Assembly (NCBI GenBank): GCA_009694475.1
Contig: SHUX01000008.1
Location: forward strand, 1 to 37,697
Direction: 5' to 3'
Origin: Thermoleophilia bacterium
GTDB taxonomy: Bacteria > Actinomycetota > Thermoleophilia > Gaiellales > F1-60-MAGs149
DNA length: 37,697 bases
This document shows positions 249-26,444 of the stretch, in pieces (position 1 is the first letter of the stretch; each line of letters begins with the position of its first letter). Made by a program: the position numbers and the translations under genes. The notes beneath the pieces were generated by a model. The model was given only the letters and a program-made list of their open reading frames with translations, made no database searches and was not told the DNA's origin.

Positions 249-1010
249 ATGAGCACCCAAATCACAACCACTCCAAGTGCCACAGCGACCGACGCTGTCG
301 TGGTCGCCACAGACCTCTCGAAGATCTATGGCGAGGGCGATTCTGAGGTGCGGGCACTCGACGGCGTCTCCGTCTCCTTCCCCAAGGGCCAGCTGGCTGC
401 GGTAATGGGGCCTTCCGGCTCGGGCAAGTCCACGCTGATGCACATCCTCGCGGGGCTCGACCAGCCGACCAGTGGCAGTGTCCTGGTCGATGGCACCGAA
501 CTCGCCGGCCTCAACGATCAGAAGTTGACGCTGCTGCGCCGCGACAAGATTGGTTTCGTCTTCCAGTTCTTCAACCTGCTACCTATGCTCACGGCCAAGG
601 AAAACATTGAGCTACCGATGAAGATCGCGGGCACGACGCCGGACGCGGAGTGGGAGGCCACACTCGTTGAGGCGACGGGCCTCGGTACGCGCCTGACGCA
701 CAAGCCGGCCGAATTGTCCGGCGGCCAGCAGCAACGTGTCGCTGTCGCCCGCGCCCTGCTTTCGAAGCCCGCCGTCATTTTTGGCGACGAGCCAACCGGT
801 AACCTCGACTCCAAGACCAGCGGCGAGGTACTCGACCTCCTGCGTCGCGCCGTCGACGAGTTTGGTCAGACGGTGATTATGGTCACCCACGATGCGAGTG
901 CGGCAGCGATTGCCGATCGCACCCTGTTCCTCCGCGACGGCAAGATCGTGCGCGATGCGGGGCACCTGTCGGCCGGCGAGATTCTCGACACGATCAAGAC
1001 GCTGGAGTAG
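249..1010 (+). CDS. ABC transporter ATP-binding protein, MacB/LolD-type
   Basis: Walker A GPSGSGKST, signature LSGGQQQRVAVARAL, Walker B VIFGDEPTGNLD, H-loop VTHD; followed directly by an FtsX-type permease. Confidence 0.95.
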   Translation: MSTQITTTPSATATDAVVVATDLSKIYGEGDSEVRALDGVSVSFPKGQLAAVMGPSGSGKSTLMHILAGLDQPTSGSVLVDGTELAGLNDQKLTLLRRDKIGFVFQFFNLLPMLTAKENIELPMKIAGTTPDAEWEATLVEATGLGTRLTHKPAELSGGQQQRVAVARALLSKPAVIFGDEPTGNLDSKTSGEVLDLLRRAVDEFGQTVIMVTHDASAAAIADRTLFLRDGKIVRDAGHLSAGEILDTIKTLE

Positions 1011-23570: not shown

Positions 23571-23706
23571 GCCGAACGCGATGGTGTCGCGCTAGCGCGT
23601 GACGATCACCGACGTCGCTTGGCCAACCTCAGCCGCGCGCCCATCGTGTCCAATCGCTCCGTCACAGCCGCCGCACACGGCCGCGTGGATTCGTAGACTG
23701 CGAGGC

Positions 23707-24783
23707 ATGGCCACTGTCTCCTTTGCACGCGGCGTTCCGTCCGCAGACCTCCTACCCATCGACGAACTGAAGAGCGCGATCGTGCGCGCGATGGACAAGG
23801 ATGCGGCGGGGATGCTGCTCTATGGCGACCCGATGGGCTACCTGCCGCTGCGCACGTGGATTGGTGATCGCTGGGGTTTCGATCCGGCTGGCGTCTTCGT
23901 GACGAACGGCTCGCTGCAGGCCTTCGCGTTCCTGGCTGAGGTGTTGTTTGCCGGCTCGGGTGGCCGTGCCGCTGTCGAGGCTCCGACGTACGACCGCACG
24001 ATCCTGACGTTGAAGCGTTTTGGCGCGACGGTCGACGCCTATCCGCTGCTCGAGGACGGCATCGATGTCGATGCGCTTGAGGCTGCGATCAAGGCTGGTA
24101 AGACGCCGGGGTTGGTCTACATCATCCCGAACTTCCAAAACCCGGCCGGTAATGTCACGACGCTCGCCGTCCGTCAGCGCCTCGTCGATTTGGCAGCCGA
24201 GCATGGCTTCTGGATCTTCGAGGACGACCCGTATGGCGACCTGCGCTTCTCGGGCAAGGACGTCGCCCGGATGGTCGATCTCGATACGGCTGGTCGCGTG
24301 ATCTACTCGACGTCCTTTACGAAGACGATCGCCCCCGGCATTCGCTCCGGTGCTTTGCTGTTGCCGGAAGAACTGCGCAAGCAAATGGCGTACATCGCCA
24401 ACCAGACTTACATTGGTGCGGTGCACTTTGCCCATGCCGCCGTGGCCGAGTATTGCGCGGCCGGTGAGTTCGACAAGGGCCTCGACCGCGTGCGTCCGCA
24501 GTTGGAGGCCCGCAAGGACGCCTTGGTTGTTGCGCTCGACGCGCACCTCGGCGACCGCTTCTCGTATCGCGCGCCCGAGGGTGGCTACTTTCTTTGGGGC
24601 AAGCTCGATGGTGTCGACTGCGATGCCCTGCTGCCGAAGGCGAGCGAGGCCGGCGTGCCGTTCGTCAAGGGCTCTGACTTCTTCGTCGACGGCTCTGGCA
24701 AGGACCACCTCCGTCTCGCCTTCTCGGCCGTCAAGCCCGAGGAGATGGACGAGGGCATCGCCCGTCTCGCCGAACTTCTCTAG
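23707..24783 (+). CDS. PLP-dependent aminotransferase (class I/II, 2-aminoadipate-aminotransferase-like)
   Basis: IIPNFQNPAGNVTT, FEDDPYGDLRF, STSFTKTIAPGIRSG (PLP Lys), FVDGSGKDHLRLAFS. Confidence 0.9.
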   Translation: MATVSFARGVPSADLLPIDELKSAIVRAMDKDAAGMLLYGDPMGYLPLRTWIGDRWGFDPAGVFVTNGSLQAFAFLAEVLFAGSGGRAAVEAPTYDRTILTLKRFGATVDAYPLLEDGIDVDALEAAIKAGKTPGLVYIIPNFQNPAGNVTTLAVRQRLVDLAAEHGFWIFEDDPYGDLRFSGKDVARMVDLDTAGRVIYSTSFTKTIAPGIRSGALLLPEELRKQMAYIANQTYIGAVHFAHAAVAEYCAAGEFDKGLDRVRPQLEARKDALVVALDAHLGDRFSYRAPEGGYFLWGKLDGVDCDALLPKASEAGVPFVKGSDFFVDGSGKDHLRLAFSAVKPEEMDEGIARLAELL

Positions 24784-24838: not shown

Positions 24839-25027
24839 TTAGCCGTGCTGGCGGCGACGGCCGAGCATAAACGTGCCGATGATGCCGAGCACGAGTCCTA
24901 GCCCGGCGCAGGCGATCATCACCCAGATCAGTGCGGTTGTGGTCGAGAAGACGACGAACGAGATGCTGACCTGCGCCGTGTTGGCGAGGCTGAAGGCGAG
25001 CAGGTACACCAGCACGATCGCGAACAC
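24839..25027 (-). CDS. LapA-like small two-TM membrane protein (N-terminus may extend to ~25081)
   Basis: MFAIVLVYLLAFSLANTAQVSISFVVFSTTTALIWVMIACAGLGLVLGIIGTFMLGRRRQHG; N-VSISF...GLVLG..GTF pattern; start uncertain. Confidence 0.6.
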   Translation of the reverse strand: MFAIVLVYLLAFSLANTAQVSISFVVFSTTTALIWVMIACAGLGLVLGIIGTFMLGRRRQHG

Positions 25028-25101: not shown

Positions 25102-25281
25102 CTAGGAGGCCTGCGCGGCCAATGGTGCTGCGGCGGGGCGTTCGATCAACTGTGCCTGGGGTGGCGGGACAAGGCCCGCGCGCTTTGCCAGACGAAATGT
25201 TGCACAGGGCTCGGTGCGGGGCAGTGCGCAGAGGTCGTGCACGCAGAAATAGCACTGATTACATGCGCGCGCAGACACCAA
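25102..25281 (-). CDS. Cys-rich small protein, 59 aa
   Basis: MVSARACNQCYFCVHDLCALPRTEPCATFRLAKRAGLVPPPQAQLIERPAAAPLAAQAS; TTG start with GAGGAG 6 nt upstream; promoter-like sequence upstream; below the length cutoff of the supplied track. Confidence 0.6.
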   Translation of the reverse strand: MVSARACNQCYFCVHDLCALPRTEPCATFRLAKRAGLVPPPQAQLIERPAAAPLAAQAS

Positions 25282-25340: not shown

Positions 25341-25369
25341 AGGTTACGGTTAGGTGCATGACGACGCAA
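25341..25369 (-). promoter_or_regulatory. Putative sigma70-type promoter for the Cys-rich ORF: TTGCGT-N17-TAACCT
   Basis: Minus-strand -35 TTGCGT (25364-25369) and -10 TAACCT (25341-25346) separated by 17 nt. Confidence 0.55.
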
Positions 25370-25387: not shown

Positions 25388-25409
25388 CCCCGCAATATGC
25401 GGGATTTTT
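25388..25409. terminator. Stem-loop CCCGCA-ATA-TGCGGG with T5 on the plus strand
   Basis: Perfect 6-bp stem, 3-nt loop, followed by ATTTTT on the plus strand; directly downstream of the minus-strand protease stop. Confidence 0.5.
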
Positions 25410-25412
25410 GGC

Positions 25413-26444
25413 TTACGACGTGCGGGCGTGTGCGATTGCGCGTAACGCATCGGTGAAGGTGGCGACACCGACCACCTCGACGCCGCTCGGTGCGCTCTGT
25501 CGCGCTTCGGCGACGTTTTCCATCGGCACGAGAAAGAGGTCGGCGTCGACACGACCCGCACCGATTGCTTTCTGAGTGGCCCCACCGATTGGACCAACGG
25601 CGCCCTCCATCGAGAGTGTCCCTGTGGCTGCGACCCGCAGGCCGCGGAGGTCCTGGTAGTTCTTGCCGGCGCTGTAAATCTGGAGCGCGAAGGCGAGACC
25701 TGCAGAGGGACCACCAACACCTTCGACGGAGAACGTGACCTCGCGTGGTGTCGTGATCAGCATTGCCTCGCTTGGGACGATGCCGAGGATCACACCGCCT
25801 TGCGCATTTTTGATCGTGCGCGTTGAGATCGTGCGCGTTGAGACGGTGTCGGTTTCTTTTCCGCGGCGCACCTCTAGCGTGATCGCAGTGTCTGCGCCAA
25901 TGCGCGTGAGAGCGCCGCGGAGTTGCGGGGTGGTTGTCACGCGCGTGTCGTTGATGGCGAGGATGAGGTCGCCCAGTTCGGCGCCCGAGGTCGCAATCGG
26001 CGCCTGAGGATCGATGCCGACGATTCGTACGCCCTCGGCTTTGACGCTGATGGGCACGCCGAGTGCGCGTAGCCCCACGACTTTGGCTGCCGTCTGCGAG
26101 GAGTCCATGGCGACGGTGTCGAGCCGCGAGTGGTCCTCTTCACTCTCGCCGGGTTCGAGCAGCGCGTGGTTGGGGATCAGCTCGCCGCCATCGCCGACGC
26201 CAAACCAGGTTTCGTAGAGGGTCGCGTGGCGCACACCGATGGTGCTGAAGTACACCGAGCCAGCACCTTTCGGTGGACTCTCCTGTCCTTCCAGCGAGAC
26301 GACGCCGATGGTTGGGACAGCGGCGCGCGGCACGAACGCAAAGTCCTCGCTGTTGGCCTGCAGGGACCAGAGCAGGACGCCGCCGGTGACGACGAGGGTA
26401 ACGAGCGCAAAGCCGAGGATTAGGTAAAAGAGAAAGCGGCGCAT
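25413..26444 (-). CDS. PDZ + Lon (S16)-domain membrane-anchored protease, YlbL-like
   Basis: N-terminal TM; PDZ segment GVRIVGIDPQAPIATSGAELGDLILAINDTRV; catalytic GVGGPSAGLAFAL and GGATQKAIGA (Ser/Lys). Confidence 0.88.
   Translation of the reverse strand: MRRFLFYLILGFALVTLVVTGGVLLWSLQANSEDFAFVPRAAVPTIGVVSLEGQESPPKGAGSVYFSTIGVRHATLYETWFGVGDGGELIPNHALLEPGESEEDHSRLDTVAMDSSQTAAKVVGLRALGVPISVKAEGVRIVGIDPQAPIATSGAELGDLILAINDTRVTTTPQLRGALTRIGADTAITLEVRRGKETDTVSTRTISTRTIKNAQGGVILGIVPSEAMLITTPREVTFSVEGVGGPSAGLAFALQIYSAGKNYQDLRGLRVAATGTLSMEGAVGPIGGATQKAIGAGRVDADLFLVPMENVAEARQSAPSGVEVVGVATFTDALRAIAHARTS

What the first reader, a model, noticed from the sequence alone, without database searches (positions are those of the whole stretch)
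25102..25281. Uncalled 59-aa Cys-rich protein (C-x2-C-x2-C-x4-C-x7-C) with its own promoter-like sequence
Seen: minus-strand ORF from TTG, MVSARACNQCYFCVHDLCALPRTEPCATFRLAKRAGLVPPPQAQLIERPAAAPLAAQAS, with GAGGAG 6 nt before the start and TTGCGT-N17-TAACCT upstream. It fills a ~385-bp gap between the PDZ-Lon protease and a LapA-like gene. Five cysteines plus a His suggest a metal or Fe-S site (inference). It falls just below the supplied ORF length cutoff and has no ATG, so automated calls could miss it.
Basis: partly seen in the sequence, partly recalled or inferred. Interest (0 to 1): 0.6.

Follow-up and report, generated by a model that had tools for sequence, protein, structure and literature searches.

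The report
Class-wide conserved four-cysteine microprotein
The overlooked mini-gene is real: it encodes a 58-residue protein with four never-changing cysteines, probably gripping a metal ion, that is kept as a single copy by most species sampled of one deep-branching class of soil and freshwater bacteria, is absent from every protein library searched, and is switched on from its own conserved promoter; what it does is still unknown.

Summary
(1) The start is the GTG at 25278 (58 aa), not the TTG at 25281. (2) The third cysteine of the quoted five-Cys motif is private to this genome: in 142 distinct members it is otherwise Arg, His, Gly or another residue. The family motif is C-x2-C-[YF]-F-x4-L-C-x7-C-x-T-[FY]-R, with four Cys plus F, L and R invariant in 149 distinct members. 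The gene is found in 117 of 129 genomes of the order (42 of 43 good ones) and in 109 of 152 good genomes of the class (Thermoleophilia, inferred). No credible match turned up elsewhere in the phylum, in Pfam, NCBIfam, PHROGs or PDB sequences. Selection is codon-phased and strong (dN/dS 0.03-0.21 against the window). The promoter is supported by comparison: weak sigma70-type hexamers with a near-palindromic site CCGCAWWWTGCGG at a fixed 43 nt from the -10, centred near -62. In sister families the same site and spacing drive an undescribed ~115-nt hairpin RNA. Best guess: a cytosolic zinc-site adaptor, probably nucleoprotein-binding; a redox chaperone like Ruc/Rv0991c is the main rival. Metal and partner are untested.

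The parts
25102..25278 (-). CDS of the 58-aa four-Cys protein (GTG start at 25278, TAG stop 25104-25102): MSARACNQCYFCVHDLCALPRTEPCATFRLAKRAGLVPPPQAQLIERPAAAPLAAQAS
   Evidence: frame; homologues; start position conserved; codon-phased purifying selection; pI 8.8, 6.2 kDa
25279..25281 (-).
   Evidence: several relatives have TTC/TCG/ACG here and ATG/GTG in the next codon
25288..25293 (-). Shine-Dalgarno GAGGAG, 9 nt before GTG 25278; GGAGG-type site conserved in the genus
25341..25346 (-). -10 hexamer TAACCT
   Evidence: TAACCT/TAACGT/TAGTCT at the same place in members of the genus
25364..25369 (-). -35 hexamer TTGCGT, 17-nt spacer to the -10
25390..25402 (-). Near-palindromic operator CCGCATATTGCGG, 20 nt upstream of the -35, centred at about -62 from the predicted start of transcription (about 25334)
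   Evidence: position weight matrix and spacing; site plus promoter found once in this genome and only at this gene in the genus
25413..26444 (-). Upstream neighbour: PDZ domain plus Lon-type proteolytic domain, kept upstream of the Cys gene throughout the order
   Evidence: (PF13180, PF05362)
23599..24783 (+). Convergent PLP aminotransferase, kept downstream of the Cys gene in most of the order
   Evidence: (PF00155)
24839..25027 (-). LapA-domain membrane protein of 62 aa, immediate downstream neighbour in the window
   Evidence: PF06305, 28.2 bits against a cut-off of 28

Best explanation
A real, vertically inherited single-copy gene encodes a small cytosolic protein whose four invariant cysteines (C-x2-C-x7-C-x7-C) most likely hold one Zn2+ in a minimal knuckle that carries the invariant Phe, Leu and Arg. 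A usually basic N-terminus and a Pro/Gln tail (GLxPPxQ) flank it. I propose that it works as a housekeeping adaptor that binds nucleic acid or a nucleoprotein complex (ribosome, RNA polymerase or an RNA), made from its own sigma70 promoter under an activator-type site centred near -62. Shown: coding, conservation, invariant residues, promoter and operator architecture. Inferred: metal binding (about 0.8), zinc rather than Fe-S (about 0.7), activation rather than repression, nucleic-acid or nucleoprotein partner (about 0.35).
For: C9, C12, F14, L19, C20, C28 and R32 identical in 149 of 149 distinct members. dN/dS 0.03-0.21 for window pairs; mean pN/pS 0.25 in frame against 1.8-2.8 in four other frames and 0.39 in the antisense frame that shares the wobble position. 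Found in 42 of 43 good genomes of the order, usually one match each. Seven residues before the first Cys positively charged in 123 of 142 members. Operator spacing fixed at 19-22 nt before the -35 in 64 of 64 detected promoters, with operator to -10 constant at about 43 nt. In sister families the same operator and promoter precede a structured RNA, rpoD and a tRNA gene, i.e. expression and growth functions.
Against: No homologue of known function or structure. The only structure prediction was unusable (pLDDT 52). A basic N-terminus is weak evidence for nucleic-acid binding. The operator-controlled set also contains asd, lysC and MFS genes, so 'growth functions' is a loose label. The genomic neighbours are proteases, a small heat-shock protein and a phosphodiesterase-like hydrolase, not translation genes.
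Confidence: 0.38

Rival explanations
1. Redox-regulated chaperone or protease adaptor that works like Ruc (Rv0991c) or Hsp33: four Cys hold Zn2+ when reduced; oxidation releases zinc, forms disulfides and frees the flexible tail to bind unfolded proteins, handing them to Lon or HSP20.
For: Four-Cys core plus a low-complexity tail. The gene follows a PDZ-Lon gene throughout the order, and in families f8 and f10-f12 lies near a metallo-beta-lactamase-fold gene, HSP20 and full-length Lon on the same strand. Ruc has four zinc-binding Cys, a disordered tail and proteostasis neighbours (PMC7448276).
Against: No sequence match to the FmdB/Ruc-like protein of the same genome; different Cys spacing. 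The tail is not random but carries a conserved GLxPPxQ segment. Families f7 and f9 lack protease neighbours. The gene is set apart by about 110-170 nt and its own promoter, not clearly in an operon.
Confidence: 0.2
2. Fe-S cluster protein: the four Cys bind a [4Fe-4S] or [2Fe-2S] cluster for electron transfer or for sensing O2 or NO.
For: Four invariant Cys in a small cytosolic protein; a CxxC pair; malate dehydrogenase-family genes lie near the locus in several families.
Against: The ferredoxin-like C-x2-C-x2-C exists only in the window genome. No WhiB, ferredoxin or other Fe-S family matches. Spacing C-x2-C-x7-C-x7-C does not fit ferredoxins or WhiB-like proteins as I know them.
Confidence: 0.17
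3. The Cys protein is itself the DNA-binding regulator of the CCGCAWWWTGCGG operator and regulates its own gene.
For: In the window's genus the site with its promoter occurs only at this gene. The site stays with the gene in families where the neighbours differ. Basic N-terminus.
Against: G077 (96% complete), G099 and G072 have no detectable Cys gene (G077) yet keep operator-driven promoters, with copies of the hairpin RNA just downstream. At 58 aa it is small for a palindrome-binding dimer.
Confidence: 0.07
4. Not a protein gene: the conservation reflects an overlapping RNA or regulatory element and the ORF is incidental.
For: A strongly conserved non-coding element lies just upstream.
Against: Codon-phased selection, invariant Cys at about 40% identity, conserved start and ribosome-binding site.
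Confidence: 0.02

Closest known systems
Ruc (Rv0991c) family of Mycobacterium tuberculosis, redox-regulated chaperone (PMC7448276)
   Same: Small actinobacterial protein with a four-Cys zinc module near the N-terminus, a weakly structured tail and proteostasis genes nearby
   Different: Ruc is a zinc-ribbon protein conserved across phyla; this family is class-restricted, has spacing C-x2-C-x7-C-x7-C and no detectable similarity to the FmdB/Ruc-like protein encoded elsewhere in the same genome
Conserved signature proteins of class Thermoleophilia (Hu et al. 2019, PMC6544083)
   Same: That paper lists 32 class-specific proteins of unknown function, several of 64-82 aa and four shared with Gaiella; this family has just that kind of distribution
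   Different: Sequences are not in the main text, so I could not tell whether this family is on the list; the main text mentions neither cysteine nor zinc
WhiB-like (Wbl) Fe-S proteins of Actinobacteria
   Same: Small actinobacterial cytosolic proteins with four invariant Cys
   Different: No Pfam or NCBIfam match; different Cys spacing; no G-[IV]-W-G-G turn
Zinc ribbons and DksA/TraR-type zinc fingers
   Same: A CxxC knuckle and four Cys ligands
   Different: Only one CxxC; the second half is C-x7-C, not CxxC

Membership tests
Ruc / FmdB-type zinc-ribbon chaperones | Detectable sequence similarity to FmdB/Ruc-like proteins | tested here: not met
   no alignment at E<=100 with the FmdB/Ruc-like protein of the same genome (L121:1854-2261, named by eye); no Pfam hit
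Ruc / FmdB-type zinc-ribbon chaperones | Zinc binding and oxidation-dependent chaperone activity | not testable with these tools
   needs purified protein
Ferredoxin-like [4Fe-4S] proteins | C-x2-C-x2-C-x3-C-P cluster motif conserved in the family | tested here: not met
   third Cys present in 1 of 142 distinct members
WhiB-like proteins | Match to the WhiB profile, Cys spacing and G-[IV]-W-G-G motif | tested here: not met
   no Pfam or NCBIfam match for 18 and 33 members; motif absent from the column counts
Zinc ribbon / DksA-type zinc finger | Two CxxC (or CPxCG) knuckles | tested here: not met
   conserved spacing C-x2-C-x7-C-x7-C, with x6 or x8 in a few members
Thermoleophilia-specific conserved signature proteins | Found across the class and in no other taxon | tested here: inconclusive
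   127 of 199 genomes of the class and no credible hit outside it among 397 phylum genomes, but families f5 and f6 lack it or nearly so; identity with a listed accession could not be checked
Structural zinc (Cys4) microproteins | Stoichiometric zinc bound by four thiolates | not testable with these tools
   four invariant Cys are consistent with it; the metal was not measured

The most novel reading that the evidence does not exclude
The protein is a class-specific zinc-site cofactor of the gene-expression machinery (RNA polymerase, ribosome or a regulatory RNA), co-regulated through one ancestral operator with an undescribed multi-copy hairpin RNA of the same order, so that protein and RNA belong to one growth-control system unknown outside Thermoleophilia.
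Probability: 0.12. Interest if true: 0.8.

Novelty: new variant of a known kind. Interest (0 to 1): 0.52.

Why it matters
A gene of fewer than 60 codons, kept as a single copy through most of a deep-branching bacterial class with seven invariant residues and its own conserved promoter site, is likely to matter to those cells, yet no family library searched contains it. It gives a concrete target for functional work on Thermoleophilia. Its operator also exposed a small set of genes and an undescribed structured RNA, which makes the unknown regulator testable. It shows too that the apparent five-Cys motif of a single genome can mislead, and that comparison fixes both the start codon and the metal-site hypothesis.

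Tried and rejected
Relatives in viral contigs and plasmids: none. Sequence families in Pfam, NCBIfam, PHROGs and PDB, for single members and for a divergent 33-member set: nothing credible. A Rfam match in the leader or operator region: none. The upstream palindrome as an intrinsic terminator: it is followed by T's on the + strand in the window, but in some relatives it is flanked by TTTT...AAAA, and in f2 it is often no hairpin; the fixed distance to the -35 argues for an operator. ClgR as the binder (CGC-N5-GCG half-sites recalled from memory): not testable here, and the extended ClgR consensus I remember does not fit. The Cys protein as its own regulator: disfavoured by G077, G099 and G072. 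Non-class hits (E 7e-4 to 0.01, short, some with stops): taken as chance.

Full report
WHAT WAS CHECKED. The minus-strand frame at 25281-25102 exists and translates as quoted. The Lon-PDZ gene stops at 25413 and the LapA-domain gene occupies 24839-25027, so the ORF lies in a true gap of about 385 bp.

IT IS A GENE. A protein search finds a relative in 117 of 129 genomes of the same order, in 42 of 43 good ones and in 37 of 42 genera, usually one per genome. With a profile it is found in 127 of 199 genomes of the class, 109 of 152 good ones. It is absent from the rest of the phylum: 18 hits in 297 genomes, all in the class. With a more sensitive 33-member profile, every match better than 1e-9 in 397 phylum genomes is in the class, and the ten other genomes give only short fragments at 7e-4 to 0.01. 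Within the genus, pairs with the window give dN/dS 0.03-0.21; mean pN/pS is 0.25 in this frame, 2.3-2.8 in the other sense frames and 1.8-2.7 in two antisense frames. The third antisense frame, which shares the wobble position, gives 0.39.

CORRECTIONS. Start: the codon that corresponds to the window's TTG is TTC, TCG or ACG in several relatives, while the next codon is ATG or GTG in nearly all of them, behind a GGAGG-type site. The start is thus GTG 25278, giving 58 aa, 6.2 kDa, pI 8.8. Cysteines: 149 distinct members keep C, C, F, L, C, C and R without exception at profile columns 9, 12, 14, 19, 20, 28 and 32, with T at column 30 in 146 and F or Y at column 31 in all. The window's extra Cys is at column 15, where 142 members distinct in their first 40 residues have R (95), H (17), G (17) or others, and C only here. 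Motif: C-x2-C-[YF]-F-x4-L-C-x7-C-x-T-[FY]-R, followed in most families by GLxPPxQ.

CLASS. One same-genus record is titled 'Thermoleophilia bacterium' (L005). One class genome has a single contig of 6,359,369 bp, which from memory is the size of Conexibacter woesei.

CONTEXT. In families f1-f3 (the window's order) the gene always follows the PDZ-Lon gene on the same strand, by 112-172 nt to the first Cys codon, and usually faces an aminotransferase. In f8 and f10-f12 it usually precedes, on the same strand, a metallo-beta-lactamase-fold gene, HSP20 and full-length Lon; in some f10 genomes these lie kilobases away. In f7 it faces lipB. In f9 it faces a UspA-like gene and ileS. Malate dehydrogenase-family genes lie nearby in several families. 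This looks like vertical inheritance of one locus, with changing neighbours and no strict operon.

PROMOTER AND OPERATOR. Comparison makes it strong. In the genus, TTGcc-N17-TAacct-like hexamers sit at the same place. ATTTGCG occurs at 2.69 per kb upstream of this gene in 41 genomes against 0.033 per kb in other unassigned DNA of the same loci. A weight matrix gives [CG]CG[CG]AAATTGC; wherever a TTGnnn-N16..18-TAnnnT promoter lies 5-60 nt downstream (64 cases), the distance is 19-22 nt, and f1 (20+17) and f2 (21+16) both keep 43 nt from site to -10. The matrix was trained on the same sequences, so the independent tests matter more. The pattern CGSAAWNTGC-N44..46-TANNNT gives 94 matches in 46 genomes of the order against 11 for the reversed control. 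In the genus the site with promoter occurs six times in 13 genomes, always at this gene, with one control match. The site is centred near -62, a position typical of class I activators (general knowledge); activation is inferred.

SHARED CONTROL. In other families of the order the same architecture precedes a ~115-nt non-coding RNA (44 copies extracted), often in tandem, ahead of a 63-aa membrane protein, an MFS gene or rpoD. It also precedes short terminated leaders before asd and lysC, and a tRNA gene. The RNA folds as an irregular rod; 18 of 27 pairs show compensatory changes. It has no Rfam match and is found in f1 (two genomes outside the window's genus), f2, f3 and f4, but not in G000 or the five other same-genus genomes scanned. 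Three genomes without a detectable Cys gene (G077, 96% complete; G099 and G072, about 81%) keep operator-driven promoters with RNA copies just downstream, so the Cys protein is probably not the regulator.

MECHANISM. Shown: coding, single copy, four invariant Cys, own promoter and operator. Inferred: one metal, most likely zinc, because spacing and profiles match no Fe-S family and no signal peptide is apparent. The usually basic N-terminus (123 of 142) and the company kept in the operator-controlled set favour a nucleic-acid or nucleoprotein partner; the neighbours favour proteostasis, where Ruc/Rv0991c (PMC7448276) is the nearest functional analogue. I lean to the former at 0.38 against 0.20 for the latter.

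NOVELTY. No library searched contains the family. A 2019 paper lists 32 Thermoleophilia-specific proteins of unknown function without printing sequences in its main text (PMC6544083); this family may be among them. Small Cys4 proteins are a known kind; this is a new, class-restricted variety with a spacing that matched no library model, and an undescribed control region.

Noticed in passing
L268:1381-1497 (-), L274:1565-1682 (+), L262:1566-1679 (+), L299:69-179 and 350-462 (+) and about 40 more; alignment A4, model R1: An undescribed ~115-nt rod-like structured RNA with a terminator-like U tract, 1-6 copies per genome in f2 and also in f3, f4 and part of f1, often in tandem; 18 of 27 pairs with compensatory changes, no Rfam match. 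It is driven by the same operator-promoter as the Cys gene. Not detected in the window's own genus.
   Followed up: partly
L258, L259, L261, L268, L272, L274, L286, L297, L298, L304, L307, L312, L313, L315, L316 (just downstream of the RNA): A conserved ~63-aa membrane protein (MHLRMPSIDxGVxxFLWA...IFLxVRxxGGD) follows the RNA in about 20 cases; the one member scanned has no Pfam match.
   Followed up: partly
L262:1500-1900: In G031 the RNA with its operator-promoter sits directly upstream of an RpoD-type sigma factor gene.
   Followed up: no
L295, L296, L302, L270, L308 (before asd or other genes) and L277 (before lysC): The same operator-promoter is followed within about 10 nt by a near-perfect hairpin and T-run (CACTGAACCGGCGGGCCTTCGGGTCAGCCGGTTCAGTGTTTTT): a very short terminated leader or tiny RNA before asd and lysC.
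   Followed up: no
L288 (G040) and L291 (G042): The operator precedes a 75-aa rubredoxin-like protein (YICLECGYG...CPMCHG), with only a sub-threshold Pfam match (DUF7129).
   Followed up: no
L125 (G143), about positions 1500-2100: In family f9 a CAATTTGCGG site with similar spacing lies upstream of an nrdR-like gene.
   Followed up: no
window 25389-25403: The operator palindrome is followed by T's on the + strand in this genome and scores as a + strand terminator; several relatives lack the T-run.
   Followed up: yes
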